DNA of 64,000 nucleotides, taken from Antedon mediterranea. Taxonomy: Eukaryota > Echinodermata > Crinoidea > Comatulida > Antedonidae. The position numbers were made by a program, and so were the translations under genes. Location of the stretch: NCBI RefSeq assembly GCF_964355755.1, contig NC_092673.1, positions 28,339,001 to 28,403,000 on the forward strand, in the 5' to 3' direction. This document shows, piece after piece, positions 9,200 to 57,200 of this stretch (within the stretch, counting starts at the first letter, position 1; each line of letters begins with the position of its first letter). The notes under the pieces are model-generated. The model made no database searches and was not told the DNA's origin. It saw nothing but the letters and a program-made list of their open reading frames with translations.

Positions 9200-12100
9200 A
9201 TGACTTTTGCTTTCAAAGATAAACACATCAATTTGTGTTCAGAAGCTGAGCATGATTACACTGTTGATATCAAAACAAATAAAGTTCCTCTCATCATCGA
9301 TAATGGTAAGATATACACTAAGCTTTATAAGCTCTGTTCACACTATCAAACTTTATGTTACAACAAAATGTGATGTGCCCATATATGGACATGATAATGT
9401 CATATCACTACCATATTTAGGTATATTACTATCATATTTCATTGGACACAGAACACTTTTTGTTCAAAATAGTTTGATAGTGTAGACAGAGCCTTAGGAT
9501 TAAATCCTGTTCACATTGAAATAAATACACATAGTCATAGGAAGTGTTTTTCCAGCTTAACACTTAGCCACGTTCATATTGGCAAGAACCACAACATGTC
9601 TGTTTACATGTCTCTCTGATCAATTTTACTATTATGTATTGTTGTTTTTAAAATTTAACTTAGGAAGTTGTAATGTTTTTCTTTTTGTATTTGGGGACCC
9701 AATGGAAATAAGGTTTTTATTAAATTTTCATTGGTTATCCTCAGTTAAAAAGTATCCTTTTTTTTTTTAATTTTTGTCTATAAAATTGAATGAACTGAAT
9801 AAAATGAGAAAAAAAATTGTAACACCATATGCTGTGCAGTATTTTCATATATTCTTTTTTAATAATAAACTTATGATACCTTATTTTGTTTAGGGTCATA
9901 TCAGTGCAGGGCAGGCTGGGCTACCGAAGACAACCCTAGACTTATATTCAGAAATTTAGTGGCCAAGCAAAGAAGCAAAAAAGACGTCATTAATGAAACT
10001 TATATTGGAAATGACATCACAAACATAGAAGTTGTTCGATGGATGCTAAAAAATCATTTTGATCGTGATGTTGTCGTAAATTATGATCTACAGGAGCAGG
10101 TATTTGATCACGTTTTTTCTCATCTTGGTATAGAAGGTCAAGGGTCGTTGGAACATCCCATTGTGTTAATGGAGGCTGTCTGTAATCCAAATCATTCACG
10201 GCAATGTAAGTAATAATTCAGTATTTTTCAGAAAAGTGTTTGCTTGGACAAATTTCTTGCTTAAAGGCTGTCTTAATGTGTTAATATATTTTTTCCATTT
10301 CAGTGATGAACGAGCTTTTATTTGAATGTTACCGAGTTCCGTCTGTGTCATTAGGTGTTGACGCCCTCTACAGTTTGTACAACAACAGACCAGAATCAAG
10401 TACGTTTATTGAAATAGCTGTTTTCTATTAAATCTGGCACGTAAGGCTTACCTATAGTATTTAATTTCTTGTGGTTATAGTCAGTGAGTTATGAGCATTC
10501 ACTGGCTAAACCCAGGGGCCCCAGAGCTCAAGGGGCCCCAGAGCTCAAGGGGCCCCAGAGCTCAAGGGGCCCCAGAGCTCAAGGGGCCCCAGAGCTCAAG
10601 GGGCCCCAGAGCTCAAGGGGCCCCAGAGCTCAAGGGGCCCCAGAGCTCAAGGGGCCCCAGAGCTCAAGGGGCCCCAGAGCATGAGCAGCCCCAATGCAAG
10701 CATTGGATGGTCCCTTTGGAGTGCTAAACTAGGGGACTTTGCGCTGTTCGTTACACCACTGTGATTATAGTCGTTCTATGTTAGTATTCAATTATTGTAT
10801 TCTGGATTGCACACGTAAAAGTGTCGTCGTACATGCTTGACCATCCCAGCGGACAGTGAACCACTTTCTTTCCATTTGCACAATTTGACCAATGTATTTT
10901 AAATATTTTCAGTGAAATTCGATGGTATCATTTTATCGTCTGGTTACCAGACAAGTCATGTTCTACCTTTTGTAAATGGTAAATTGGATGTTACGCAATG
11001 CCGACGTATCAACGTTGGAGGATCACAGTCTGTAGCGTTCCTACATCGACTGCTTCAATTAAAGTACCATAGACATTTTGCCGCTATTAACCTTAGCCGA
11101 TCTGAGGTAGGGATGCTCTCAGAAGTTTGCATTACCAAAGCGTATGTTTGGGGACGGGATAAAAAATTGTTCCAAGTTTTTCTTTTATTACTCAACAGTG
11201 ACACAGGTCATAAATATTGGAAAAGCAAGCAATACATTTTTTTAAATTTCATACGCATCCAACAGCAAGTAACTCCAATTACAGGATGGATAAACTATTA
11301 AATAATTTATCGTGCTTACATTGCATACAGTCTCATTTGAGGCTTAGGGAGTGGAGTTGAAAGAGTTGTGAGTTACAGCCATGGCAATAGGTCAGGATTG
11401 AACCCTGGACCTTGGGATAGGAAGGCAAACGTGTTAACCACCAAGCTACAGCTCCACTACTTTTGAAGTACTTTCCACATTTCATAGACAAACTCCTATA
11501 AAGCATTTTGGTTTGTGTCAAAAGAGTATGGGTGATGTTTAACTTATATCACACCATTGGTAGGTGCTATACAAAAGCTTTAGAATAGACTTTAGGCAGC
11601 AGAGATGACATTCAGGTCCCTTACGATTTATATCTTCCAAATAAACTCAAATGTCTCTGTTTTTGTAATTTATCATTTCTTGCAGGAAATGTTAAAAGAG
11701 CATTGTTACATAGCAGAAGAATTTTGTTCTAATCTTGAACTGTGGAGTAAACAAAACTATTACAACGAACATGTTCATAAAATGCAGTTGCCATATACCC
11801 CAGTAAGAGCAAATATTTTTACTTATAATCATATATACTTATCAGTTTTGGTATGCTGGAATTTAGCCTAAATTAGGGGGTGGGATTATATACTCAAGCA
11901 TGGGCTTATACTCGGTCATATATGGTATTTATTGTATTGACTTTGTATTGCATAGCTTCCAGGTTGGTCTACCGGAGACAAGATTGAACAAAGAAAACAA
12001 AAGGTTGAACGACTCAAAGAACTTAATGCTAAAAGAAGGCAGGAAAAGGTTGGAACTTTTGTTTAATAAATATTTTTTTTATCTTAATTGACACAATTTC

Positions 12101-17230: not shown

Positions 17231-20186
17231 CTATAGCTCTTCATGTAATAAACTGTTCCCTGTTAAACCATGTCCATAATGAGTGACGCGGCTACCAGCG
17301 AACACATCGTAATGATTTAGAATTTCTTCCAAACTTAACTTTCCATCCATGTCATCGTCTGATTCTTTTAATAGATGCAAAGCCTAATAAAAATAATTAT
17401 AATTTTTTGAAAAATGTGCAAACCATAAATACTATAGTTCTGCTATTGATGGGTTTATGGGTGATACAGGTATCCTTATTATCCAAATATCTACTTTTAA
17501 ATTATTTATTTTAAAGAGTTTTTATTTTTAAAAGAATACAGTATTAGAGTATTAGACTTAAAAGAGTTAATCTCTTTCACCTCATCTACAGCATTATCTT
17601 TATATTTTGGTGAGACCCAAGCATAGATCTCGTCTCCCTTCAATACACCATCCTTATTTGTATCTAAAATGCTGTTAAATAATTCTGTTTCTTCTTTCAC
17701 CCATCCTGGGGGATTGCCATCATCTTAAAAAAAAAACAAGATAAATGTTGTAACCCTTGACAAAATACAAATATACAAGATTTTGTTTTCATTTTTAAAT
17801 ATATTTTTTGGTCAAATAATCAAGAAATTAATTACCTTGTTTATAGTAATCTCCAAGAAATTCTTCTAAATCAACTCCATTATTAATATTGTTGTCTAAA
17901 TCTAGTAACACTTGTTCTATGACGATATCCTAAGAAATTGTAGAGTATATTAGTTAAAAGAAGTTAATAGAGAGGTTTTGCAATCTTACGAATACGAAAA
18001 CGGATACGTCACGCACACGTATTCGTTTTCGTAAGCCATAAAAAAATCTGTTTCGCATGGCAACGAAATATCGAGGCGCGTCCAAAATATGACTGCAGTA
18101 AATTTGAGCGAAGCGAAGGTAAGTGTTGCTTGGTGCTTGGCTGCCTAGGCCTAGCGTGACATCAAAGCGAGTGAGTGAGGACTTTAAAAACTGCTATTTA
18201 TCAAAATTGACCTGGCATTTTAGTAAATTACTTTAGTAAATTACTTTCAATAAATCTATAATTATATCATAATCATGAATCATTCCTGATTCAAATGCAA
18301 AATGTGCAAAATAGATCAAAAACTATACTCGTTTTGTAGTTACGAATATGACTGGTGATATTCGTCAACACGAATACGCTTTACGAATATGAAATGGGGA
18401 TCAGCTCAAAAGTTTCACAAATGTGTGACGTATCCGGTTTCGTTATCGTATTCGTAAGGTTGCGAAACCTCCCTATTATTAGTTAATACAGACCTACAAC
18501 ATATCAACAACTAATTGTTAAAATAATAAATATACAAATCAGACTGTATGTATGATGTACCTTCATATGATCAGCAATTCGTGGGTTGTGAAACGGTAGA
18601 TATTCCTCCGTATTCAACACTCCATCACCGTCCATATCAGATGACTTAAACCGCTTCTCATTGCGGGAAATCTCCTGTAATTTAATAGTAGTAATAGTAA
18701 ATGTATTGAGAGCATTAGGAACCTTTTGATTTGCTAGGACGTATCATGTGTGCATTCCGCGACGCAGATTTTGCAGATTGTAGGTTTTCAAGCGACAAAT
18801 AATTACACAATATGTCTAGGTTGTTGAAAATGTGGGTATGCATGGCGCCATTTTTGTATTGTACCATTTTCTATCAAAATTAAAAATAAGGAATAACATA
18901 TTTTTGTCATTGTATTTTGTATTGTATGGTAATTAGTTCCTACATATAATATGTGATTACTATTTTATTCTACTCAAAACTTAAATTATGGATATGTGAA
19001 AACCAGATCCTATGTCCATAACTTATATTATGAATATGTCCATTAAGGACAAACCTTTTGGTACGATAATTCTGGTTTAAAATCCTCTCCTGGCACAAAG
19101 CCAAAAACAAATTCCAGGTACTCATCCCATGAAACCACGTTGTCTTTGTTCTTGTCCTGCATCTCAAATACTACTATGGATTCATCCCTATCAATCTTTT
19201 TGAACGACTCCATTAGCCATCTAACCATTTCATCTGAAACGAGGAGAATTTTAAATCTTATGACAATACTCTTAAGCTCTGTTTACACTATCAAACTAGT
19301 TTGACAAAAAAAGTGTGATGTGCCCAAATATGGTTGTGATATGCCCAAATATGGTAGTGATATGCCCAAATATGGTAAAGATCTGTCTACACTATCAAAC
19401 TTGATGTGAAAAAACATGTGCCATATATATGTACAAGATGTCATATCACTACCATATTTGTGCATTATACTGCCATATTTGGACATTTTATTTTTTAACT
19501 GCAAATTGAAAGTGTCACCTGTTGAAACAAAGCTATCATTGTTCTTGTCAATACTTTCTACTATCTTTGTCAGTTTATTTTTGCTTTCACTTTCTGTCAG
19601 ATCTTCAAAGGCTTTCGCAGCGTTCTGAGAAATTAATCAAATAAATATATTATCTCATTTATATCACAACTGGCAATTAACAGTTCCTACCACTACTAAT
19701 TATTTGGTAGTCAAATTGGGGCTTAATCTTCTATGCTTGCTGTCCAAGGACAACATAGCACAGGATATGCAGTAGAACGTCTATATAACAGCCCACAGAA
19801 TTAGTGAGTTTGTCCCTGAATAGGGGTGAGGGATTCTATTGTACTAGAAACACAAAATGTCACTTGGAGTCTACTGTATGTGTATCATAGATTCAGCATC
19901 TACATTATTTATTTACTTATTTATTTGATGATTGATGATATGATTGCTTTCTTGGTGCATGTCATATGTAATAAAAATGTTTATTTAAACTATATATTTC
20001 TTTGCTTCTTACTTCACCGCCAAGAAAAGCCTGATGATCGAACTCTACATTATGTACACCATTTGCCTGCTCGTGATCAGCCATATTGTTAGATTCAGCA
20101 TGTTTTCTGTCTGATTCCACTGTTACTATTAGTAGGCATATTGACGACACTACTACAAGCAAACTAAATCCATAAGAGTGTCCCAT
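17231..20186 (-). CDS. RCN2: Reticulocalbin-2-like (CREC family) EF-hand protein of the ER
   Basis: Low-affinity calcium-binding protein of the secretory pathway. Exons in coding order: 20186-20013, 19624-19519, 19233-19055, 18674-18561, 17929-17836, 17723-17581 and 17383-17231 (TAG). They give 320 residues; human RCN2 has about 317. The N-terminus is a signal peptide with hydrophobic core LLVVVSSICLLIV. A family FDHQAFLGG motif follows, then six EF-hand positions. Five have normal 12-residue loops: DKNNDSFVSTDE, DKNKDNVVSWDE, DMDGDGVLNTEE, DTNKDGVLKGDE and DDDMDGKLSLEE. The fourth, DLDNNINNGVDLEE, is two residues too long. The C-terminus HEEL is a variant ER-retrieval signal. The ATG is 6 nt after a strong 3' splice site, suggesting a 5' UTR intron. 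Promoter shared head-to-head with the SMYD3 gene. Another CREC member is possible, but the FLGDY and ALHLL motifs favour RCN2. Confidence 0.88.
17968..18475. mobile_element. MITE of the GAGGTTTCGCAA family, copy 2
   Basis: 508 bp in a reticulocalbin intron (between the exons at 18561-18674 and 17836-17929). Same ends and interior as the copy at 1428-1897; differs by small insertions, including an extra segment near 18045-18080. Confidence 0.75.
19272..19515. mobile_element. MITE-1 copy with extra internal units, reticulocalbin intron 2
   Basis: Begins TTAAGCTCTGTTTACACTAT, with several CCCAAATATGG units and a second left-type end embedded near 19382. The right part is decayed. It nearly fills the 285-bp intron, and its decayed end reaches the 5' splice site at 19518 (reverse strand). 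Confidence 0.7.
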
Positions 20187-26166: not shown

Positions 26167-26333
26167 TGTCAAGTGTACATATTGTAAACTGTAATAAAAA
26201 TGTTTATATTATACAAATAAAAGTTTTTTTATGAAATAAAACAAAAAATCTGGTTTCTTCCATTGTACAGTACTTTTGTCAGCTTCGGCGTTCCATATAC
26301 GTACAATTAAAAACAACAAAACAAAGTCTATCG

Positions 26334-26406
26334 CACGTGAGCTATATTGTGTAGTCGTTTATTGATAACTGAGAGCTATCAGTGTGTATAATCCTCGTAC
26401 ATAATT
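26334..26406 (+). repeat. Left outer inverted repeat of the satellite block
   Basis: Starts at CACGTG and contains GTGTAGTCGTTTATTGATAA then CTGAGAGCTATCAG and ATCCTCGTACATAATT. The reverse complement of 37714-37787 matches with a few mismatches and small gaps. The middle resembles a diverged 97-bp satellite monomer (GTAGTC, TGATAACTGAG). Confidence 0.65.
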
Positions 26407-26610
26407 GTTTCTTAGTTGTAATAAAGAACACATTATTATAATATCAAGCATGTTATTATGATAAACAAATTTATAGGTATCAATACTGATATTTTTACTT
26501 TAAAAAATTTTAATAAGTTTTTTAATAACACAGAAACAACATTCTTAATTTAACAAATGATATGTAGTACTACTAAATCAATGTCTAATTGCATAAGGAC
26601 TATGTGTACA

Positions 26611-29600
26611 GTATTATGATCAGTGTAGTTACAATTTGATAACTGAGCACGCATCTCACATCTACCTCATCAATAATTATTATTAATAATCTATATCACG
26701 TTGTAGAATATGATGAGTGTAGTCATAATTTGATAACTGAGCACGCATCTTTTAGAATCTACGTCATCAATTTTAATATTAATATTATATATCACATTGT
26801 TGGATATGATCAGTGTAGTCATAATTTGATAACTGAGCACGTATCTTTTAATATCTACATCATCAATAATTATTATTAATAATCTATATCACATTGTTGG
26901 ATATGATCAGTGTAGTCGTCATTTGATAACTGATCACGCATCTTTAAATATCTACCGCATCAAAATTAATATAAATAATCTATATCACATTGTTGGATAT
27001 GATCAGTGTAGTCGTAATTTGATAACTGAGCACGCATCTTTAAATATCTACCTCATTAATAATTTATATTAATATCATATATCACATTGTTGGATATGAT
27101 CAGTGTAGTCAGAATTTGATAACTGAGCACGTATCTTTTAATATCTACCTTAATAATAATTTATATTAATATCATATATCACATTGTTGGATATGATCAG
27201 TGTAGTCGTAATTTGATAACTGAGCACGCATCTTTAAATATCTACCTCATTAATAATTTATATTAATATCATATATCACATTGTTGGATATGATCAGTGT
27301 AGTCAGAATTTGATAACTGAGCACGCATCTTTCAATATCTACCGCATCAATTAATAATCTACATACACATTGTTGGATATGATCAGTGTAGTCAGAATTT
27401 GATAACTGAGCACGCATCTTTCAATATCTACCTCATTAATAATTTATATTAATATCATATATCACATTGTTGGATATGATCAGTGTAGTCAGAATTTGAT
27501 AACTGAGCACGCATCTTTTAATATCTACCTCATTAATAATTTATATTAATATCATATATCACATTGTTGGATATGATCAGTGTAGTCAGAATTTGATAAC
27601 TGAGCACGCATCTTTCAATATCTACCTCATTAATAATTTATATTAATATCATATATCACATTGTTGGATATGATCAGTGTAGTCAGAATTTGATAACTGA
27701 GCACGCATCTTTCAATATCTACCGCATCAATTAATAATCTACATACACATTGTTGGATATGATCAGTGTAGTCAGAATTTGATAACTGAGCACGCATCTT
27801 TCAATATCTACCTCATTAATAATTTATATTAATATCATATATCACATTGTTGGATATGATCAGTGTAGTCGTCATTTGATAACTGATCACGTATCTTTCA
27901 ATATCTACCACATCATTAATTAATATTAATATTATATATCACATTGTTGGATATGATCAGTGTAGTCATAATTTGATAACTGAGCACGTATTTTTTAATA
28001 TCTACCTCAATAATAATTTATATTAATATCATATATCACATTGTTGGATATGATCAGTGTAGTCAGAATTTGATAACTGAGCACGCATCTTTCAATATCT
28101 ACCGCATCAATAATTCATATTAATATCATATATCACATTGTTGGATATGATCAGTGTAGTCGTCATTTGATAACTGATCACGTATCTGTCAATATCTACC
28201 TCATTAATAATTTATATTAATATCATATATCACATTGTTGGATATGATCAGTGTAGTCAGAATTTGATAACTGAGCACGCATCTTTCAATATCTACCTCA
28301 ATAATAATTTATATTAATATCATATATCACATTGTTGGATATGATCAGTGTAGTCATAATTTGATAACTGAGCACGCATCTTTAAATATCTACCGCATCA
28401 ATTAATAATCTACATACATATTGTTGGATATGATCAGTGTAGTCGTAATTTGATAACTGAGCACGCATCTTTAAATATCTACCTCATTAATAATTTATAT
28501 TAATATCATATATCACATTGTTGAATATGATCAGTGTAGTCATAATTTGATAACTGAGGACGTATCTTTCAATATCTACCTCATTACGAATTATTATTAA
28601 TATCCTATATCACATTGTTGAATATGATGAGTGCAGTCATAATTTGATAACTGAGCACGCATCTTTCAATATCTACCTCAATAATAATTTATATTAATAT
28701 CATATATCACATTGTTGAATATGATCAGTGTAGTCATAATTTGATAACTGAGCACGCATCTTTAAATATCTACCGCATCAATTAATAATCTACATACACA
28801 TTGTTAGATATGATCAGTGTAGTCGTAATTTGATAACTGAGCACGCATCTTTAAATATCTACCTCATTAATAATTTATATTAATATCATATATCACATTG
28901 TTGGATATGATCAGTGTAGTCAGAATTTGATAACTGAGCACATATCTTTTAATATCTACCTCAATAATAATTTATATTAATATCATGTATCACATTGTTG
29001 GATATGATCAGTGTAGTCAGAATTTGATAACTGAGCACGCATCTTTCAATATCTACCTCATTAATAATTTATATTAATATCATATATCACATTGTTGGAT
29101 ATGATCAGTGTAGTCAGAATTTGATAACTGAGCACGCATCTTTTAATATCTACCTCATTAATAATTTATATTAATATCATATATCACATTGTTGGATATG
29201 ATCAGTGTAGTCAGAATTTGATAACTGAGCACGCATCTTTTAATATCTACGTCATCAATAATTTATATTAATATCATATATCACATTGTTGGATATGATC
29301 AGTGTAGTCGTCATTTGATAACTGATCACGTATCTTTCAATATCTACCTATTCATTAATTAATATTAATATCATATATCACATTGTTGGATATGATCAGT
29401 GTAGTCATAATTTGATAACTGAGCACGTATTTTTTAATATCTACCTCAATAATAATTTATATTAATATCATATATCACATTGTTGGATATGATCTGTGTA
29501 GTCAGAATTTGATAACTGAGCACGCATCTTTCAATATCTACCGCATCAATAATTCCTATTAATATCATATATCACATTGTTGGATATGATCAGTGTAGTC

Positions 29601-31605
29601 GTCATTTGATAACTGATCACGTATCTGTCAATATCTACCTCATTAATAATTTATATTAATATCGTATATCACATCGTTGGATATGATCAGTATAGTCAGA
29701 ATTTGATAACTGAGCACGCATCTTTTAATATCTACCACAGCATTAATTAATATTAATAATCTATATCACATTGTTGGATATGATCAGTGTAGTCAGAATT
29801 TGATAACTGATCACGTATCTTTCAATATCTACCTCATTAATAATTTATATTAATATCATATATCACATTGTTGGATATGATCAGTGTAGTCAGAATTTGA
29901 TAACTGATCACGTATCTTTAAATATCTACCTCATTAATAATTTATATTAATATCATATGTCACATTGTTGGATATGATCAGTGTAGTCGTCATTTGATAA
30001 CTGATCACGTATCTTTCAATATCTACCTCATTAATAATTTATATTAATATCGTATATCACATTGTTGGATATGATCAGTATAGTCGTCATTTGATAACTG
30101 ATCACGCATCTTTTAATATCTACCACATCATTAATTAATATTAATAATCTATATCACAGTGTTGGATATGATCAGTGTAGTCAGAATTTGATAACTGATC
30201 ACGTATCTTTCAATATCTACCTCATTAATAATTTATATTAATATCATATATCACATTGTTGGATATGATCAGTGTAGTCAGAATTTGATAACTGAGCACG
30301 CATCTTTCAATATCTACCGCATCAATAATTCATATTAATATCATATATCACATTGTTGGATATGATCAGTGTAGTCGTCATTTGATAACTGAGCACGCAT
30401 CTTTAAATATCTACCGCATCAATTAATAATCTACATACACATTGTTGGATATGATCAGTGTAGTCGTAATTTGATAACTGAGCACGCATCTTTAAATATC
30501 TACCTCATTAATAATTTATATTAATATCATATATCACATTGTTGGATATGATCAGTGTAGTCAGAATTTGATAACTGAGCACGTATCTTTTAATATCTAC
30601 CTTAATAATAATTTATATTAATATCATATATCACATTGTTGGATATGATCAGTGTAGTCGTAATTTGATAACTGAGCACGCATCTTTAAATATCTACCTC
30701 ATTAATAATTTATATTAATATCATATATCACATTGTTGGATATGATCAGTGTAGTCAGAATTTGATAACTGAGCACGCATCTTTCAATATCTACCGCATC
30801 AATTAATAATCTACATACACATTGTTGGATATGATCAGTGTAGTCAGAATTTGATAACTGAGCACGCATCTTTCAATATCTACCTCATTAATAATTTATA
30901 TTAATATCATATATCACATTGTTGGATATGATCAGTGTAGTCAGAATTTGATAACTGAGCACGTATTTTTTAATATCTACCTCAATAATAATTTATATTA
31001 ATATCATATATCACATTGTTGGATATGATCTGTGTAGTCAGAATTTGATAACTGAGCACGCATCTTTTAATATCTACCACATCATTAATTAATATTAATA
31101 ATCTATATCACAGTGTTGGATATGATCAGTGTAGTCAGAATTTGATAACTGATCACGTATCTGTCAATATCTACCTCATTAATAATTTATATTAATATCA
31201 TATATCACATTGTTGGATATGATCAGTGTAGTCAGAATTTGATAACTGAGCACGCATCTTTCAATATCTACCGCATCAATAATTCATATTAATATCATAT
31301 ATCACATTGTTGGATATGATCAGTGTAGTCGTCATTTGATAACTGAGCACGCATCTTTAAATATCTATTTCATCAATAATTATTATTAATGTCTTATATC
31401 ACATTGTTGGATATGATCAGTGTAGTCATAATTTGATAACTGAGCACGCATCTTTAAATATCTACCTCATCAAAAATTATTATTAATAATCTATATCACA
31501 TTGTTGGATATGATCTGTGTATTCATAAATTGATATAACGCATCTTTTATTATCTACCTAATCAATAATAATTATTAATACTTAATTTTGGATATGATCA
31601 GTGTG
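26611..31605 (+). repeat. 97-bp tandem satellite array (forward), about 50 copies
   Basis: Measured period 97 bp (for example 27083 to 27180). Conserved part of each unit: TTGGATATGATCAGTGTAGT, then TTTGATAACTGAGCACGCAT and AATATCTACC, followed by a variable AT-rich half with alternating TTAATAAT. Sequence variants recur in groups, suggesting a higher-order pattern of several units. The first and last units are the most diverged, as expected at array edges. Confidence 0.95.
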
Positions 31606-32339
31606 ATTTTGTTAGATTTACTGTATACAAGAGATCGAGTCGATGGGTTTTGAAAATGTGTTATTCTTTTGTTCCTAATCACCCTATTGATTTGTATCCG
31701 TTTGCTGTTTAAATTTATACTTTTAAGAACGCATCGTTTATGATGAACGTGTGCCGTTGTAAAAATAAAAATATTCCATATCTTTTTATGTTTGATATGT
31801 ATTGTAGAGGCCATCATGAGACATGCTTTGGCTTCTATTGAGGGTCCCAGTTCTTCTTAACAGAATAAATGTGCAGTGAATGAATTATTTGATAAATGAG
31901 GACGTGTGTTTTAACATCGATCTATACAGACCGTAATACTCTTCCAGAAATGATATGTTGCTATAATAGGCCTATGACCAATTTCCATTACATTAATAAT
32001 TCAATTAAGATTGGAAATGTGTCAGAAATACTAAAGAAATCCAGTAATCTTATTGATTAATAATTATTTATACCATTTCTGATGAACGAACAGAAAACTA
32101 AACTTGCAGCCAATCAAAAAGCTGCTGTACTGTATAAGTAGGGAATTTTAAGTAGGAGTTGTTTTAAATGTCATTGGTCTCGGCTAATCAGTTATTGCCA
32201 TTTGACTATGATAGGCATCCTTTATTACCTATAACCAGGGAAGAGTTAAATTTAACTCTTCCCTGCTATAACTATGGGTAGACCAAACAATAATAAAATA
32301 TAATGACTTCCTTCACTTTTTACAACCTAGTTCGTGTTT
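31606..32339. other. Unique spacer between the two satellite families
   Basis: About 730 bp of non-tandem, AT-rich DNA with no credible open frame. The only structure seen is a 30-bp perfect palindrome at 32236-32265 (CAGGGAAGAGTTAAA followed by its complement). Confidence 0.6.
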
Positions 32340-34618
32340 TAAAATGTCAATTTTGGATAAATTTACAGATTTTACCATTTAAACTGCGTAAACGTAATGC
32401 AAACTTTAAAAAAACACCCACAAACATCATCCAAACAACTTAATATTGATTATACCACTACAAGAACTATAAAAGAGGACAATTTATGAAATCATTTCAT
32501 TGAAATAGCTCTAGGTTTGATTTTTTAGGGTGAAAAATATCAATTTTTTGATAAATTGACAGATTTTACCATTTAAACTGCGTAAACTTAATGCAAACTT
32601 TAAAAAATAGCCTACAAACATCATTCAAACAATTGAATACTGATTATAGCACTACTAGAACTATAAAAGAAGACAATTTATGAAATAATGTTATTGAAAT
32701 AGCTCTAGGTTTGACTTTTTTGGAGTGAAAACGTCAATTTTGGATAAATTGACAGATTTTACCATGTGAACTGTGCAAACTTTAAAAAAAACACCCACAA
32801 ACATCATCTAAACCACTTAATATTGATTATACCACTACAAGAACTATAAAAGAGGACAATTTATGAAATAATTTTATTGAAATAGCTCTAGGTTTGAATT
32901 TTTTGGGTAAAAAATGTCAATTTTGGATAAATTTACAGATTTTACCACGTAAACTGCGTAAACTTAATGCAAACTTAAAAAAAACACCCCACAAACATTA
33001 TTCAAACCACTTAATACTGATTATAGCACTACAAGAACTATAAAAGAGGACAATTTATGAAATAATTTAATAGAAATAGCTCTAAGTTTGATTTTTTAGG
33101 GTGAAAAATGTCAATTTTGGATAAATTTACAGATTTCACCATTTCAACTGCGTAAACTTAATGCAAACTTTAAAAAAACACCCACAAACATCATTCAAAC
33201 CACTTAATATTGATTATATCATTATTAGAACTATAAAAGAAGACAATTTATGAAATCATTTTATTGAAATAGCTCTAGGTTTGATTTTTTAGGGTGAAAA
33301 ATATCAATTTTTGGATAAATTGACAGATTTTACCATTTAAACTGCGTAAACTTAATGCAAACTTTAAAGAATACCCTACAAACATCATTCAAACAATTGA
33401 ATACTGATTATAGCACTACTAGAACTATAAAAGAAGACAATTTATGAAATAATGTTATTGAAATAGCTCTAGGTTTGACTTTTTTGGAGTGAAAACGTCA
33501 ATTTTGGATAAATTGACCGATTTTACCATGTGAACTGTGCAAACTTTAAAAAAAACACCCACAAACATCATCTAAACCACTTAATATTGATTATACCACT
33601 ACAAGAACTATAAAAGAGGACAATTTATGAAATAATTTTATTGAAATAGCTCTAGGTTTGAATTTTTTGGGTAAAAAATGTCAATTTTGGATAAATTTAC
33701 AGATTTTACCACGTAAACTGCGTAAACTTAATGCAAACTTAAAAAAAACACCCCACAAACATTATTCAAACCACTTAATACTGATTATAGCACTACAAGA
33801 ACTATAAAAGAGGACAATTTATGAAATAATTTAATAGAAATAGCTCTAAGTTTGATTTTTTAGGGTGAAAAATGTCAATTTTGGATAAATTTACAGATTT
33901 CACCATTTCAACTGCGTAAACTTAATGCAAACTTAAAAAAAACACCCACAAACATCATTCAAACCACTTAATATTGATTATATCATTATTAGAACTATAA
34001 AAGAGGACAATTTATGAAATCATTTTATTGAAATAGCTCTAGGTTTGATTTTTTAGGGTGAAAATGTCAATTTTGGATAATTGATAGATTTTACCATGTA
34101 AACTGCGTAAACTTAATGCAAACTTTAAAAAATACCCCACAAACATCATTCAAACAATTGAATACTGATTATACCACTACTAGAACTATAAAAGAAGACA
34201 ATTTATGAAATCATTTTATTAAAATAGTTCTAGGTTTGACATTTTTGGGGTGATTATGAAATAATTTTATTGAAATAGCTCTAGGAATAAATTGACACAT
34301 TTTACCATGTAAACTGTGCAAACTTTAAAAAAACACCCCACAAACATCATCCAAACCACTTAATATTGATTATATCACTACTAGAACTATAAAAGAAGAC
34401 AATTTATGAAATCATTTTATTAAAATAGCTCTAGGTTTGAATTTTTTGGGGTAAAAAACCACTTAATATTGATTATAAAAGAAGACAACTTTTTGAAATG
34501 ATTTTATTGAAATAGGTCAAAGTTTGACCTTTTTGGATAAATTGACAGATTTTAAAGTGTAAACTTTACAATGCAAAAAAGGCCATCTGCAAAAATCCTT
34601 CAAACCACTTATTATATT
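32340..34618 (+). repeat. 193-bp tandem satellite with a 764-bp higher-order repeat
   Basis: The landmark TCAATTTT recurs at 32347, 32540, 32734, 32917, 33111, 33304, 33498, 33681, 33875 and 34067, giving units of 183-194 bp. Units separated by four positions are much more alike, with an offset of exactly 764 bp at four consecutive landmarks (32540/33304, 32734/33498, 32917/33681, 33111/33875). A third, decaying higher-order copy starts at 34067. Conserved text includes AACTATAAAAGARGACAATT and GAAATAGCTCTAGGTTTGA. Confidence 0.95.
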
Positions 34619-34624
34619 AGGACA

Positions 34625-36290
34625 ATATTAATATTTGAAGCAGATATAAAATGATGCATGCTCAGTTATCAAATGACTAGGCCTACACTGATATTTGATA
34701 TTGGTATATAGACAATTAATATTAATTATTGTTGAGGTAGTTCAAACTATGATTACACTGATCATATCCAACATTGTGATATAGAATATTATTTTGGAAA
34801 AGGTAGATATTAAAAAAGTAAACAGATCATATCCAACAGTTTGATATAGATTATTAATATTAATTGATGATGCAAATATTAAAAGATTTTTTCTCAGTTA
34901 TCAATTATGACTACACTGATCATATCCAACAATGCGATATAGATTATTAATATTAATTGATGATGCAGATATTAAAAGATTTTTGCTCAGTTATCAATTT
35001 ATGACTACACTGATCATATTGAACAATGCGATATAGATTATTAATATTAATTATTGATGAGGTAGATATTAAAAGATGCGTGCTCAGTTATCAAATTATG
35101 ACTACACTGATCATATCGAACAATGTGATATAGATTATTAATATTAATTATTGATGAGGTAGATATTAAAAGATTTTTGCTCAGTTATCAAATTATGACT
35201 ACACTGATCATATCCAACAATGTGATATAAATTATTAATAATAATTATTGATGAAATAGATATTGAAAGATGCATGCTCAGTTATCAAATTATGACTACA
35301 CTAATCATATCCAACATTGTGATATAGATTATTAATAATAATTATTGATGAGGTAGATATTAAAATATGTATGCTCACAGTTATCAAACTATGACTACAC
35401 TGATCATATCCAACATTGTGATATAGGATATTATTAATTGTTATTGATAAGGTAGATATTAAAAAACTAAACAGATCATATCCAACAGTGTGATATAGAT
35501 TATTAATATTAATTATTAATGAGGTAGATTTTTAAAGATGTATGCTCAGTTATCAAATTATGACTACACTGATCATATCCAGCAATGTGATATAAATTAT
35601 TAATAATAATTATTGATGAAATAGATATTGAAAGATGCGTGCTCAGTTATCAAATTATGACTACACTAATCATATCCAACATTGTGATATAGGATATTAT
35701 TAATAGTCATTGATAAGGTAGATATTAAAAGATGCATGCTCAGTTATCATATTATGACTACACTGATCATATTGAACAATGCGATATAGATTATTAATAT
35801 TAATTATTGATGAGGTAGATATTAAAAGATGCATGCTCAGTTATCAAATTATGACTACACTGATCATATCGAACAATGTGATATAGAATATTAATAATAA
35901 TTATTGATGAGGTAGATATTAAAAGATGCGTGCTCAGTTATCAAATTATGACTACACTGATCATATCGAACAATGTGATATAAATTATTAATATTAATTA
36001 TTGATGAGGTAGATATTAAAAGATGCGTGCTCAGTTATCAAATTATGACTAACACTGATCATATCCTACATTGTGATATAGGACATTATTAATAGTTATT
36101 GATAAGGTAGTTATTAAAAGATGCGTGCTCAGTTATCAAATTTTGACTACAAAGATCATATCCAACATTGTGATGTAGATTTATATTAATATTAATTATT
36201 GACGATGTTGATATTAAAAGATTCATGCTAAGTTATCAAATTTTGACTACACTGATCATATTTGATATTGTGATTGATGAAATATTCATA
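34625..36290 (-). repeat. 97-bp satellite array in inverted orientation, about 16 copies
   Basis: Units of about 96 bp such as GCTCAGTTATCAAATTATGA followed by CTACACTGATCATATCCAAC are the reverse complement of the forward array. Divergence between units is higher than in the left array, and a few are truncated (near 34800 and 35460). Confidence 0.92.
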
Positions 36291-36589
36291 AATAGTGTAC
36301 AATACTCACAGTATTTTTTAATCCATCCACATGAAGAAGAGACACAAGAACAAGAGTTGTTTGAAATTGTGAAGCCTCACAACCTTACTAATTGTGATGA
36401 CATTTAATATAATATTACAGCCATACACAAACAGTAAGGTAGTTAGGGTCACTACAATCTATTAAAATAATTAACATTAATTAACTGGAAACATTGTTAA
36501 TTATCAGTTTGAGTTTGACTTTTGTCTCTTTTGTTGTAGAATTGAATCTCTCTTTATCCATTGCTTTCAACCTGAAAATAAACAGGCCT

Positions 36590-37330
36590 AAATAATACCT
36601 TGGCATTAGCAATGAAATCAACTTGCACACTGATGAATCTTAATACTCCTACCTATCTAATATTTTATATAGATAGGCTGTCTATGACCCCCCAGCCTAT
36701 CCCTAGCTAGGCCGGGAGCCTATGCCTCTCTAGACCATTCTGCTGGCTAGCTAGCAAGGCCCTAGGTCTAGTCCTATAATTAATAGCACAGGTCTCATAT
36801 AGATAGGCCTAGAGTGTTTAGACTGAGCCTGGTTATATGCCTATTTATTTAACTAGGACTAGGCAGGCCTAATCAGCCTAAACTAAGGCCTAATAAACTA
36901 GTCTGGGCCCTAACTAAAATACATACATATAGAGCTAGCTAGTTAGGCAGCCTAGGCCTAGACTTATTTATTAGCTAGTAAGTAGGCCTAGCTAGCTAGC
37001 CTACCAGTTCCCTAGTAGGGCCTAACCAGGTGGGCCTAGTAGCCTAGCCTAGCTAGTAGTAGTAGCCTACTACTTCTTTCTAGGCCTAGGCCTAGCAAGA
37101 CTAGGCTAGCCCTAGTACTAGTAGGCCTAGCTAGGCTATAGGCCTAGTAGTACTAGGCCTATTTCTAGGCCTAAACTACTAGCTAGAGTAGCGAGATGCT
37201 AGCCTAACTAGGCCTAGGCCCTAGCTAGCTAGCTAGCCTAGGCCTAGCCTCTTTCTAGCTAGGCCTATAGGCTATAATAGGCTAGGCCCTAGCTAGCCTA
37301 GGCTAGGCCTAATCTGCCCCTTTTTGGAGG
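36590..37330. repeat. CTAGGCCTAG-rich low-complexity tract
   Basis: Dense overlapping copies of TAGGCCTA, CTAGCTAG and GGCCTAGGCC with irregular spacing, all short palindromes. Shorter tracts of the same type are at 8640-8900, 53270-53380 and 54225-54250. There is no coding signal. Confidence 0.8.
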
Positions 37331-37713
37331 CTAAAATATTGTCTGAAATAAGCTATGACCTACAAATATAGCTTAACTATCTGTTAAGGGTGACACTGAT
37401 GATGGGTAATCAATAAAATATGCTTCTAAATCTACCTTTTTGGCTTGCAATCATAATATCCAGTCTAGCCTAGGCCTGCACGGATCAGGTAGCAAAACGA
37501 ACGAAGTGAGAGCACAGAGGAGGAGGAGGCCTAGGGCCTAGGTTTCAGGCAGAAAAGAACATCTTGAGTTTGTGTAATTATATATCTATTTATAGTTATT
37601 TTAAAATATATCCCTAACATTTAAAAAGTTATATATATTACTGATAATTAATTGTAAGAAGGATACTCTACCTAATGATATTATCAATTAAATGTATTTT
37701 CCGTACGAAATTA

Positions 37714-37787
37714 ATTATATACGAGGATGGCATAAGTGATAGCTCTCTGTTATCAAAAAACAACTACATACTATACCTGCGCACGTG
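37714..37787 (-). repeat. Right outer inverted repeat of the satellite block
   Basis: Reading ATTATATACGAGGAT then GATAGCTCTCTGTTATCA, AACTACATACTATA and CACGTG, this is the reverse-complement partner of 26334-26406. Confidence 0.65.
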
Positions 37788-38472
37788 GCATGTGCACACA
37801 GCAGACTAGGCCTAGCTAGGTACGTCTGGGCCTATTGTGCAGTATTCTTTCATTTTCAGTTCTGTCGTTATGAATTTCGATTAACTGTAAATTACATTAT
37901 TGTATCTTTTTCGAAAAACAATTTGGCTAGGCCTCTAGAACCCTGGGCCTAGGCCTAGTCTTTTAGTTAGACAATTTTACTATTTTTAGGCTAGGCTAGG
38001 CTGTAAAGAAAAGTAAGTAGGCAGGCTAGGCTAGCTAGGCCCTAAGCCCCCTTTCCTAGCAAAGTCTAGGTCGAATCGTCCCACTACCGACCTCCTCGCT
38101 TAAGTGTACGGCTAGCTAAAGTTGGCTTAGCTAAACCCGTAATAAAATAAATAGGTTTATGCTAAACCTATACATAGCCTATAGCCTTAGGCTATAATAT
38201 ATCTTGTGTGTTCTTGATCTTGGGCCAAGGGTTGGGCCTACTATATTACACTATGTCGAGTAATATTATTAGTAGTACTAACTCAGTAACTAGCCCTACA
38301 CATAAATTTAGTATTGCTAGTCCAGGGACAAGACCAATCGAACGAGGGGCCTAAAAAGTATGATCTGTCCTAGCAGAGTATACGCCAAACAATGTTCCCA
38401 CACTTGGCATATTATTTATATGAATTTACAATGTTACTCAATCTGTTTTGCCTTTGTTTCCAAGACTGTACC
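37788..38472 (+). promoter_or_regulatory. Upstream region of PHPT1
   Basis: Contains several TAGGCCTA motifs and no repeat family. A good 3' splice site (TGTTTCCAAG ending at 38464) precedes the PHPT1 ATG by 8 nt, so a non-coding first exon probably lies in this interval. The promoter itself is not identifiable. Confidence 0.35.
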
Positions 38473-51211: not shown

Positions 51212-54200
51212 GTAATGTGTTTTTGTTTTTTGGTATATAAAATACAATGCTATGAAATTGCCAGTGTGGCCATGTATTGGGATTTAGTCGTTGCTGCAGC
51301 TGAACAAGAATACGTGAAATAGTTTAATTCTGGTTTTTACCGTATTCAAGGCCTGTGTCACATACTGAGGTGTGACCGACAACACATTGAGGGGTGTGTG
51401 TGTGGGAGGGTTGTTTTACTTTTGTGCTTGAAATGTGCACCTCCCTGTTCCTTTCCGTCGAATTGAAAACGGAGGCCACAATTGTAATTCATAGAATAAT
51501 AATAATGTGCTAATCACGGATCAAAAACGGTTCCGAAAAAGAGAGCCGGTGGTGAAAGGCCTACGTCTGTACTTTTGCATCATTTTATTTTTAATATAAC
51601 AATATTTATCTCCCTTCTGAACTTGAACATGGACGTCGAGTATTACTTGAACACTCATTTACGTCACGCGGGTCATCATATATTAAACTTTCGAGCCATA
51701 ACACATTAATGACAGCCAATCAAACGTCGGCTTCATATATTATTATGGCATGCAGAAAAATAATGTATCTAGCTGCCCATTGACTCACACGGAATTCAGT
51801 ATTTTATGAAAATTAAATGTTGAAATATATTTGTATTGCTTCCGATTAGTGATTAATTTAATAATTATAATCAACCAATTAGATCATTTATTTTGATTAT
51901 ATTTTAGCTTATTTTTAATTAAACTGACGCACCACAGTTATTCAAAATAGAAATTCAGTTCTGCTTGGCATAATTTAGACGAAAAACTACAATTAAGAAA
52001 ACTTCAAATTGCAAAACGCTATATAAGCCAGCCATTTGTTAAAAATAGTCTGCTAAATCTCAGAGGAATTTTGAAAAATCTCCATCATGTATGGATTTAT
52101 AAAAATTAGTTGTAGGCTATTTCAAATATGGCGTCTCGGTTCAGTCATAGGAAATTGACTTTTAGTATATGAACTTACCTGCTCAATCAAGCGTAGATAT
52201 TTGGATTCTGTCCAAACTTTAGTACGTACTTATTCGTTACGATGTTGAGTTCTAATGCGCACAGAAAAAGCACAATATTTTTGTTACAGTAGTACAAAAT
52301 AAAAGTTGCATCAAATAGTAGGCCAGCAAATAAAGTTGGCCCGGGTGGTTCATTTCTTTACCTCAGTGATTTTTAAAATTGTTAATATCATAGGAAGACA
52401 GTCCATCGCCTTTCTGTTTTAAATTTCTAAATTAATAAATGGATTTATGTAATTTCAGAAATAAATTTCTAAATATTGATGGGTCTATTATATTATCTGT
52501 TTAATTTCTTGGATCCGCCTGGAATATACTATCAATCTATTTTATCAACCCTATACTAAAGTAGATTATTACTTTCTCCCACAATGCACCCTGTTTTACA
52601 CATTTAAATGTCGCAAATGTGGGTTAATTAAAGCGTTCCTAAAGTGTGTAATTATTATTAATAATATTTAATTGTATATTTAATCTTCATAGTATGGCAA
52701 CATTTTAGGAAATTAAAACAAACACTAGTTGATATTTATAAATGTGACGCCTTACATCATTAATACATCAGAGACTGGGGATGGAACCATTTTGATTGAG
52801 GGGTGTGTGTGTTGTGTTTGTGTGAAATAAGCTTAATAAAATGGTTTTCTTTGAGGCTTGTGGGCCTAATGAGGCAATAGTTGTATCAGGTATATGTTTA
52901 ATATAAGTGTATACATATTAGATTTGTTTTAAACATAAATTTCGGTATCTTATCTAAGTAAATTTGGTAAATCTATACAAACTCCTAGGCCTAGCTAGCT
53001 AGACTAGGCCACACGCACCATGTACCACCCAGCCAAAAAAAGCAAGTACGGCGACATAGCCATCCCGTTGCCTTATGCATACTCTAGCTAAAGGGCCTGA
53101 AAACATACCCCACCCCATTCAGGTACAATTTCTGTAGATTATATCTGTACCTTGTAGGCCTAAATAAAGTAATATCATTTATTAATTAAATAAAAAAATG
53201 GTCTGTCAGTGAGTGAACCTTATTAAAATAAAATTTCATCAGGTATGCCTAGTAGTAGGCTAGGCCTAGCCTACTAGGCCTAGTAGCTAGCCTCTAGCCT
53301 AGCCATTATTAAAATTATTAACTTGAAACAAAAAATGATGCAATTTAGATCTATAGGCCTAGCTAGCTAGGCTAGGCTTAATAATATAATGATGGAAATT
53401 TTTTTTCAAATAACTGTAAATAAAAATTGGTACTGCAGTGTTAATTACATACTGTAAAGACAATTAAAGACACCTTCCCTACGTTTTTTAGATCTATTTT
53501 AAGATCACAAACTATATTTAATCTAAAAATACTACTATTATATGGTCCTATTGCGAAAACTTTTTTCGACTTTAAATGGTTAAAAATGTGAAAAATAAGT
53601 CGATTCTAGCCTAATAATTATAGCGGCCCGCTATAAATCCCAAAATGCATTGCGCGCGGATTGATATTTCTGTTTTTCTTCTGTAATTCACCCACTTTTC
53701 GATCGATCGTGCGGCCAAAACAAATGGAAGACTCCTAACTTTTCAGTGAAAGTACCGGGTTTTCCCCAATTTGTATCAACGGAGTCTGGCAAAAATAGAA
53801 AGAAAATTAAAGCCCCCTTCCCTACGTTTTTTAGATCTAATTTAAGATCACAAACTATATTTAATGTAAAAATAATACTATATGGTCCTATTGCGATAAC
53901 TTTTTTCGTCTTTAAACGGTTAAAAATGTGAAAAATAAGTCGATTCTAATAATTATAGCGGCCCGCTATAAATCCCAAAATGCATTGCGCGTGGATTGAT
54001 ATTTTTGTTTTTCACCTGTAATTCGCCCACTTTTCGATCGATCGTGAGGCCAAAACAAATGGAAGACTCCTAACTTTTCAGCAAAAATACCGGGTTTTCC
54101 CCAATTTGTATCAACGGAGTCTGGCAAAAATAGAAAGACAATTAATGCAGCAACTATACAACGTCAGGCTAGGTATATAGCTAGCGTACGATGTTCGTAC

Positions 54201-57200
54201 GTTACCGATGTTTACCAGCTAGGCCTACAAAACTAAGCCTAGCTAGGCTAGGCCTAAGACCGTCCACGAGAGGTCGATCGCCGCGAGCTACATAGGTAGT
54301 GCATTGTTTCTCACTTTTTATCATAATTTACCATAAAACGTACATTTAAGACAAGGAATGACATGGTTTAATGTTTTTAAAGTGATATATATGTATTATT
54401 TTCCAAAAAACGTCCAAAATTGCAGGGAAGGGGTCTTTAATGTAGCAACTATACAACGTCGGGCTAGGTATATAGCTAGCGTACGATGTTCGTACGTTAC
54501 CGATGTTTACCAGTTAGGGCTACAAAACTAAGCCTAGCTAGGCTAGGCCTAAAGACCGTCCACGAGAGGTCAGTCACCGCGAGCTACCTAGGTAGTGCAT
54601 TGTTTCTCACTTTTTATCATAATTTACCATAAAACGTACATTTAAGACCAGGAATGACCTGGTTTAATGTTTTTAAAGTAATATATATGTATTATTTTTA
54701 CAAAACGTCACAAATTGTAGGGAAGGTGTCTTTAAACGTAACTTGATGGTGGCAGCCTGTTCCCAAGTACAACTATGTGTAGAAAGTTGCGACCTCTGAA
54801 CCTGTGATTCACGAAGTTTAGTATAACAAAAAAAAAAAACAAAGTTTAGTATAAATAATTTGGTAACATTTAAATTTAGGATGTTGCCATACAACACCAG
54901 AGATGATTGTTGGAGGACGTGCATTTGTGTGGCCAGTCATCCAACAGATGCAGAGACTGTCTCTTAACACAATGACGCTGTCCATCAGTACAGATAATGT
55001 CTACACCAGACTGGGAGTACCTATCTCGGTCACTGGAGTTGCTCAGGTAAATTGATTGTAATTTAAATAAGTAAAGATCATGTAAACTTCAACTTTTAAC
55101 ACATTGACATTTTTGCAATATTTTAATTAATGTATTTGTATAATTTTATCTATTTGTCAACTTCATCACAGTAATCCATGATGCAAATAATGTCTATTTA
55201 TTTATTCTTTCTTTCTACTGAATGACACTTTCTCCAAAGTGGTTCTAAAAATAATTCAAAGAGAAAAGTAATTTACATAGTAGTAGTACACACACATTTA
55301 CAAAACTATCTACAAAACATACAGTATATATAAAAACTGGAAGGAATTCAAGGTAAAAGATACTTTTAAGTATTAAAATACTTAATAAGTAATATTTTGA
55401 ATTGAATTAAAATTTAATTTTTAGAATTTGTAAGAAATTTCTATGTTTTATTTTAAAAAAATCAATTTTGAAGAATGCAAACAGAGGTCACATAAAGAGA
55501 GGCCTGTCAATAAAATTCCCTTCGATGTATGAAATAATGATAGATGCTAGTTTGTTAGAGTACATTCAAATGTCAAATTTTATTTATTTAAGGTCAAAGT
55601 TCAAGGACAAAATCAAGAAATGTTGAAAGCAGCCTGCCAACAATTTCTCGGAAAATCTGAAAATGAAATCGAGCAAGTTGCTATGGAGACATTAGAAGGA
55701 CATCAGAGAGCTATCATGGGAACAATGACAGTTGAGGTACCTCAAGTTTAATCTCTAGTATTCAAATCAGCAATTATTGATATGATTTGTAATTTTCATC
55801 AAATTTATTTTAACATATTTTATTTATTATTTTTTACAAATTGTTCATTTATACTGGGTAACATTTTCAGTCAAAGAGTGGTCTCCCAGAGGGCCCATTA
55901 ATGATCTGTGGCTGACTAATGAACTAGTAGACCGAGGTAACTCCTACTCGTCTCGAAAGTGCACATGAGCCAGATGTGTACACTGGACTTATGGTTTATA
56001 GGTCCTATTTGAGAAGACTCTATCTACCACCAGAACCATGGAGTGAGTGAGGCTCGAACCCTTGTCTATGTTATGGCTACAGAATTAGGTTTCCACTGTC
56101 TTAACCGCTTGGCCGCTCACTCGCTTTTAATTTTCTTTAGCCTCCACAACCCCGGCTTACATCCATTTCTTAAATCGTGCTTTTTGTAGCTGCAGTACAT
56201 AAATGTTGAATTCATATTTGTTTGGTTAAATTATCACATTTGAACAAAACTCCAATCCTTATGATGTTCTTATTGTGTTAAACAATTATGAAAACCAAAA
56301 CTGAAAACACAACTAGCTAAGCATTTGTCTACTAATTAAAATTGTGTCTTTTCGCATCAGTGAGCTTGTCTACATTGATATTTGATTCAGTAATGTTTTA
56401 TTCAAAGAGTTGAAGCCATGTAGCTTATGTTAATGTAATCAGAAGCTTGCATCACATTTACTCAAAGTCACACTTAACATCGTTAAGCTCTATCTACACT
56501 ATCAAACTTTTATGAAAACAAAATGTGATGTGCCCATATATGAACATGATGATATCATATCACTACCATATTTGGGCATATCACCACCCTATTTAGGAAC
56601 ATCACACTTTTTTGTCAAACTAGTTTGATTGTGTAGACAGTACAGTACCACAGAATATATATAATAATAAAATGAATGTTTTAAAAACTCTATGATATTA
56701 TATTAAATCTATTTGTGCTCAATTATTTAGTACTATTAAAATATACATCATTTTTTATTAATAATAGTAGTGTTTTCTTGGTTGAATTATTCAATAACTT
56801 AGTAGCACTGTTCCTACAACCTAATACTCTATTATTTCCTATTTGGAAGCACTAACAAGGATGTGATATTTATAAGAGATTACTGGCTCAACATTTAAAT
56901 TCAGGATTTAAATTGGTTCATAGACAATAGTAAAAACCTTATTACTGTATATTAATTATTATACAGTACATGAAAATAATCTGTATATATTGCTTTGTGT
57001 TTACCAAAGGAATGGCTGCTTTTATTAGTATGTTTGAAATTAACACTGGAGTTGATTTATGTAATTTCCACATCTGATACTCACTTTATACATAGAGATA
57101 TTATAGTTCACTATAATATCTCTATGCTTTATATGATTTGTGATACATCAGGTTATGATGTATGCACACTAGTAATTTTACATTAAACCAGATTGATGTT

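What the first reader, a model, noticed from the sequence alone, without database searches (positions are those of the whole stretch)
26334..37787. Composite satellite block with mirror-image arms and inverted outer ends
A 97-bp array (about 50 copies) on the left and a reverse-complement array (about 16 copies) on the right enclose a different 193-bp satellite. Both outermost edges carry a related 73-bp sequence in inverted orientation (26334-26406 and 37714-37787) that looks like a diverged 97-bp monomer fused to a private segment. This suggests the satellite grew out of the termini of an inverted-repeat transposon, or that the whole 11.4 kb moves or recombines as a unit. I know of no named element with this layout.
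Basis: partly seen in the sequence, partly recalled or inferred. Interest (0 to 1): 0.75.

Follow-up and report, generated by a model that had tools for sequence, protein, structure and literature searches.

The report
Jumping element carrying mirror-image satellite arrays
The block is one complete copy of an 11.4-kb jumping DNA element, present in about 26 copies in this genome, whose inner flanks are long mirror-image satellite arrays that seem to have grown from its own end signals, so it shows how a transposon can build and spread satellite DNA.

Summary
Window 26339-37779 is a complete non-coding DNA transposon (family F1) flanked by the 7-bp target-site duplication CGCACGT. About 26 copies with both ends (9-15 kb, three longer) lie across the genome. 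All 24 copies with intact ends carry an exact duplication (23 of 7 bp, one of 8), against 0 of 552 mismatched end pairs. Nine fully read copies share one layout. The two arms share a consensus at 96 of 97 positions. Array length changes faster than sequence: two copies differ by 0.09% yet by about 8 monomers. One copy holds about 59 kb between left end and middle, array in two of three samples. The monomer contains a diverged copy of the terminal-repeat core. A second family (F2, 120 end matches, about 60 copies), unrelated in sequence, repeats the design: inverted 101-bp arrays, same end motifs, 7-bp duplications. No copy read carries a transposase. P-type transposons in the same genome also make 7-bp duplications (3 of 3), and the design resembles Galileo/Foldback. 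Best reading: satellite-armed Foldback-like elements mobilised in trans, probably by a P-type transposase (inferred, not shown).

The parts
26332..26338 (.). left target-site duplication CGCACGT
   Evidence: identical 7-mer at 37780-37786; 24 of 24 copies with intact ends carry an exact duplication
26339..26406 (+). left terminal inverted repeat, GAGCTATATTGTGTAGTCGTTTATTGATAACTGAG...
   Evidence: outer limit shared by about 27 copies; inverted match to right end, score 67
26407..26614 (+). left subterminal single-copy spacer
   Evidence: TIR plus spacer segment 99-100% identical in C3a and C10b; present in all nine copies read
26615..31584 (+). left arm: about 51 copies of the 97-bp monomer
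   Evidence: TRF; about 35-73 copies in the other elements and about 59 kb of left interval in one
31585..32340 (+). middle unique segment, non-coding
   Evidence: 27 long genome-wide matches: the paired copies plus one old fragment; no ORF of 120 aa or more in the element, no Pfam match
32341..34458 (+). 193/194-bp central tandem array
   Evidence: TRF; listed genome matches fall in copies of this element or in one old fragment at C2:2797820
34459..34650 (+). degenerate edge of the 193-bp array
34651..36261 (-). right arm: about 16 copies of the 97-bp monomer, inverted
   Evidence: TRF; arm consensuses differ at 1 of 97 positions
36262..37712 (+). right unique segment, including a CCTAGG/TAGGCC-rich stretch (about 36690-37330)
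   Evidence: present in all nine copies read
37713..37779 (-). right terminal inverted repeat (reads CAGGTATAGTATGTAGTTGTTTTTTGATAACAGAG... inwards)
   Evidence: 26 strong genome matches; junction table
37780..37786 (.). right target-site duplication CGCACGT

Best explanation
Window 26339-37779 is one complete copy of a large non-autonomous, Foldback-like DNA transposon family (F1). Shown: it inserts as a unit at varied sites, making a 7-bp target-site duplication; all nine copies read keep one layout; array lengths differ between near-identical copies; both arms share one monomer consensus; the monomer carries a diverged copy of the terminal-repeat core in the orientation of its own end; a second family unrelated in sequence has the same design. 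Inferred: a transposase supplied in trans, most likely of the P superfamily as in Galileo, recognises the core in the terminal repeat and again in each monomer, so the arms act as extended binding-site arrays. Also inferred: repair of breaks after excision, or unequal exchange between the tandem and inverted repeats, expands, contracts and homogenises the arms. An expanded copy can become a satellite block.
For: Both ends found as inward-facing pairs on nine or more chromosomes. 24 of 24 intact-end copies with exact duplications (23 of 7 bp, one of 8), 0 of 552 cross-copy matches. Nine full copies with one layout and no transposase ORF; the longest frame, 211 aa, lies inside a nested element. 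Unique regions differ 0.09-3.8%; C4w and C3a differ by 0.09% but have about 51 and 43 left monomers. Arm consensuses differ at 1 of 97 positions. TIR core in the monomer, 2/1000 and 4/1000 shuffles. F2: inverted 101-bp arrays, ends GAGCTATAT / CAGGTATAT, 7-bp duplications, 120 end matches. P-type transposons in the same genome: TNP-like RNase H and GTP-binding domains and 7-bp duplications at 3 of 3 copies. Galileo: 7-bp, occasionally 8-bp duplications, tandem repeats in the TIRs (PMC4168063), transposase binding sites in those repeats (PMC3688188).
Against: No transposase was found in any F1 copy read or in the one F2 copy read in full, and none of the P-type, KDZ or MULE matches lies between listed F1 or F2 ends. 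The P-type element sequenced has different termini (CTGAGACAAC). The TIR-monomer link is modest in F1 and weak at one F2 end (109/1000). The core is only slightly better conserved than the rest of the monomer (0.96 against 0.90-0.93).
Confidence: 0.7

Rival explanations
1. Same mobile, satellite-armed element, but mobilised by a transposase of another superfamily (Mutator-type as suggested for most Foldback elements, hAT, KDZ or an undescribed one) rather than a P-type transposase.
For: Foldback elements mostly belong to Mutator (PMC4079207). MULE matches with open frames up to 707 aa and a few KDZ matches exist in this genome. F1 and F2 termini do not match the P-type element sequenced here.
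Against: Duplications are 7 bp in 23 of 24 copies, the length made by P-type elements in this genome and by Galileo; Tetris, placed in Mutator, makes 8-10 bp (PMC4079207). No MULE or KDZ match lies inside a listed F1 or F2 copy.
Confidence: 0.27
2. The transposon captured pre-existing satellites; the arrays did not grow from its own end sequences, and the TIR-monomer resemblance is chance or convergence.
For: The TIR-monomer similarity is short (about 24 bp core). The central 193-bp array has no visible relation to the ends. One F2 end does not pass the shuffle test.
Against: Core matches are on the same strand as the adjoining end in both arms of F1 (2/1000, 4/1000) and at one F2 end (12/1000). 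The 97-bp and 193-bp matches listed genome-wide lie in copies of the element, apart from one old fragment (both lists are capped). A fossil end carries one clear monomer at the position where the array begins.
Confidence: 0.22
3. Static satellite block, segmental duplication or assembly artefact.
For: Tandem arrays are prone to assembly error; one copy appears to carry a roughly 59-kb left interval.
Against: About 26 copies at unrelated sites, exact 7-8 bp duplications at every intact one, one layout. Artefacts do not make target-site duplications.
Confidence: 0.01

Closest known systems
Galileo (P superfamily, Drosophila)
   Same: 7-bp target-site duplications with occasional 8 bp; long TIRs with tandem repeats; non-coding copies (PMC4168063); TIR repeats hold transposase (THAP) binding sites (PMC3688188); copy number of repeats differs between the two TIRs (PMC3573991)
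   Different: Galileo repeats are few (2-9 units per region; longest D. willistoni copy 9,021 bp, PMC4168063); here about 35-73 monomers in the left arm, an additional central satellite, asymmetric end motifs, and no coding copy found
Tetris (Foldback, Drosophila virilis)
   Same: non-autonomous Foldback-type element whose TIRs hold tandem repeats that gave rise to a satellite (PMC4079207)
   Different: 8-10 bp duplications; 220-bp repeats; only three structurally complete copies against about 26 here; Mutator suggested (PMC4079207)
Foldback (FB) and sea-urchin TU elements
   Same: inverted arms made of tandem repeats; grouped as Foldbacks in PMC4079207
   Different: shorter repeats and different duplication length as I recall them (from memory, not tested here)
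P-type transposon of the same genome (C1:2820999-2826549)
   Same: 7-bp target-site duplications at three of three copies
   Different: encodes a 794-aa open frame with transposase domains, has about 47-bp TIRs beginning CTGAGACAAC and no arrays

Membership tests
TIR DNA transposon, cut-and-paste type | dispersed copies with fixed inverted ends | tested here: met
   about 26 paired copies, ends at the same base
TIR DNA transposon, cut-and-paste type | constant-length target-site duplication | tested here: met
   23 of 24 are 7 bp, one 8 bp; 0 of 552 cross-pairs
TIR DNA transposon, cut-and-paste type (autonomous member) | encodes its own transposase | tested here: not met
   no coding copy read; non-autonomous at best
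Foldback-like elements (structural class) | long inverted arms made of tandem repeats around a middle domain | tested here: met
   for F1; for F2
P superfamily / Galileo | 7-8 bp target-site duplication | tested here: met
   F1; F2; P-type elements of the same genome
P superfamily / Galileo | P-type transposase encoded by an element with the same ends | tested here: inconclusive
   P-type transposases exist in the genome but none lies inside a listed F1 or F2 copy; most F2 copies were not read
P superfamily / Galileo | transposase binding sites in TIR and repeats | not testable with these tools
   needs binding assays; only a shared sequence core is shown
Mutator superfamily | 8-10 bp duplications | tested here: not met
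   duplications are 7 bp in 23 of 24 copies; no MULE match inside listed copies
Dada superfamily | insertion only into small RNA genes; no terminal inverted repeats | tested here: not met
   varied target sites and clear TIRs against PMC3706591

The most novel reading that the evidence does not exclude
This genome hosts a class of 'satellite-building' transposons. At least two families unrelated in sequence, sharing asymmetric end motifs (GAGCTATAT / CAGGTATA) and 7-bp duplications, independently multiplied their own end-recognition core into inverted arrays of about 100-bp units that are kept alike between arms by concerted evolution, and some copies then run away into satellites of tens of kilobases.
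Probability: 0.45. Interest if true: 0.75.

Novelty: new variant of a known kind. Interest (0 to 1): 0.6.

Why it matters
How satellites arise and spread is an old question. Here a young transposon family carries its satellite with it, copies almost identical in sequence already differ in array length, and one copy appears to be expanding towards satellite size. With about 26 F1 and about 60 F2 insertions at known sites, rates of array growth and contraction, exchange between arms, and the role of arrays as transposase-binding platforms become directly measurable.

Tried and rejected
A nested autonomous copy was sought in the longest F1 copies: the inserts are other repeats or the F2 element, without a recognisable transposase. 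TIR-core scan for a coding relative: only the known copies plus partial ends. KDZ and MULE searches: no match inside listed copies. P-type searches: none inside listed copies, but they gave the 7-bp duplication comparison. hAT was not searched. Dada rejected for lack of target specificity. The genome-wide monomer search was capped and did not list even its own source locus, so it cannot show that no free 97-bp satellite exists. The fossil end L113 was first read as holding a single monomer; a degenerate second one may follow, so it is called a very short array. The species was not identified.

Full report
Observation. The outer edges match each other in inverted orientation at about 82% over 66-67 bp. 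Their mutual alignment score is 67, against at most 35 (left edge) and 26 (right edge) for monomers of the same arm.

It is a transposon. The left edge has 30 matches and the right edge 26 strong ones. They fall into about 26 copies that carry both ends, mostly 9-15 kb, with three longer (17, 23 and 73 kb). Aligning the junctions fixes the element at GAGCTATATTG...ACTATACCTG, window 26339-37779. All 24 copies with usable ends carry an exact target-site duplication: 23 of 7 bp and one of 8 bp, with no shared sequence (one of these copies, C1a, lacks the last 3 bp of the right end). Pairing the left flank of one copy with the right flank of another gives 0 matches in 552. Two further copies have a rearranged or truncated right end.

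Anatomy. Nine copies, the window copy included, were read in full. All have, in order: left terminal repeat and spacer, 97-bp array, about 750-bp unique segment, 193-bp array, inverted 97-bp array, unique right segment with a CCTAGG-rich stretch, right terminal repeat. No copy has an ORF that suggests a transposase: nothing of 120 aa or more in the window copy, and the longest elsewhere (211 aa) lies in a nested element and has no Pfam match. The element is therefore non-autonomous. It sits between a reading frame ending near 25887 (read from the sequence) and a Janus/Ocnus-family gene (phosphohistidine phosphatase type, the latter name from memory) whose coding sequence starts near 38470.

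Age and array dynamics. Over about 1.2 kb of unique sequence the copies differ by 0.09-3.8%. The window copy and C3a differ by 0.09% yet have about 51 and 43 left-arm monomers, so the arrays change faster than the sequence. The consensus monomers of the left (419 monomers) and right (134) arms differ at 1 of 97 positions, which indicates exchange or homogenisation between the mirror-image arms. In one copy, C1:27182632-27255842, the interval between left end and middle segment is about 59 kb, against a median of 4.7 kb elsewhere. Two of three 0.6-kb samples from that interval are pure 97-bp array and the third is other sequence. It is read as a large array expansion with other insertions; its exact content is not shown.

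Origin of the monomer. The terminal repeat and the monomer share a core (TGTAGTC-n-TTGATAACTGAG) in the same orientation in each arm; 2/1000 and 4/1000 dinucleotide shuffles reach the scores. The core is slightly better conserved among monomers than the rest. An old, isolated left end at C10:3991940 (about 80% identical) has one clear monomer where the array begins in F1, possibly followed by a degenerate second one. This fits growth from a subterminal repeat, though a truncated old copy would look similar.

A second family of the same design. The 10-kb insert in the C5 copy (C5:6295202-6318162) is itself a transposon, F2. It has 101-bp arrays of 12.7 and 39.4 copies in inverted orientation, ends CAGGTATAT and GAGCTATAT like those of F1, and the 7-bp duplication CCTCCTC within a CCT-rich target. 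Its sequence is otherwise unrelated to F1. Its terminal-repeat core occurs 120 times in the genome, 60 on each strand; 40 inward pairs of 0.5-23 kb are evident among the 100 places listed. A 0.55-kb palindromic derivative at C10:7470327 carries the duplication ACTGAAG, read from its sequence. The F2 core also resembles its monomer, clearly at one end (12/1000) and not significantly at the other (109/1000). The same design in two unrelated families argues that it is selected or mechanistically favoured, not an accident.

Which transposase. No coding partner was found with F1-like ends. The genome holds P-type transposases, including three near-identical copies with a 794-aa open frame (TNP-like RNase H and GTP-binding domains). 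All three of these elements are flanked by 7-bp duplications, CGGACAC, AGCTAGC and TATAAAC, although their ends (CTGAGACAAC) differ from those of F1 and F2. Galileo, a P-superfamily transposon, makes 7-bp and occasionally 8-bp duplications and has tandem repeats in long TIRs (PMC4168063); its transposase binds sites within those repeats, and the authors propose that the multiple sites give binding specificity (PMC3688188). By analogy I infer that F1 and F2 are moved in trans by a P-type transposase that reads the core in the ends and in each monomer. KDZ and MULE matches do not coincide with listed copies, but not every superfamily was searched and most F2 copies were not read.

Comparison. 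Foldback-like elements with tandem repeats in their arms are known, and Tetris has been shown to feed a satellite (PMC4079207). Different here are the scale (about 35-73 monomers per left arm, about 26 complete copies), the additional central satellite, the near-identical consensus in both arms, the asymmetric end motifs shared by two unrelated families, and the apparent runaway copy. I rate it a new variant of a known kind. Whether these families are already in Repbase could not be checked.

Noticed in passing
window 2548-63677, e.g. 3556-3576, 19344-19364, 63044-63559: A dispersed 21-bp motif CATATCACTACCATATTTGGG occurs 44 times with up to 3 mismatches (0 expected by chance), singly, in short tandems and in one longer array; also as a 6-copy tandem in L113.
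   Followed up: partly
L117+L116+L118 (C1:2820999-2826549): A 5.55-kb P-type transposon with a 794-aa transposase frame and a convergent 337-aa ORF, about 47-bp TIRs (CTGAGACAAC...), inserted in a Ty3-like retroelement reading frame; three near-identical copies with 7-bp duplications.
   Followed up: partly
C3:10878358-10890102 (L055, L056) and C5:26697038-26710041 (L083, L084): Two F1 copies with a right end that is inverted (C3) or truncated (C5), possible products of recombination.
   Followed up: no
L102 and L104 (copies C4b and C7b), right arm: Both copies, and in part the C5c copy, share an insert of 1.8-2.9 kb with internal duplications inside the inverted array.
   Followed up: partly
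window 10514-10680: A perfect tandem array of the 17-bp GC-rich unit AGGGGCCCCAGAGCTCA, 9.8 copies at 100% identity.
   Followed up: no
window 53456-54735: Two adjacent two-copy tandem duplications, of 335-bp and 295-bp units, 92-93% matches.
   Followed up: no
C2:1382286, C2:15352026, C3:9339044, C5:1627366, C11:21020252: Five places with the same MULE-domain score in 651-aa open frames, apparently a young Mutator-type family.
   Followed up: no
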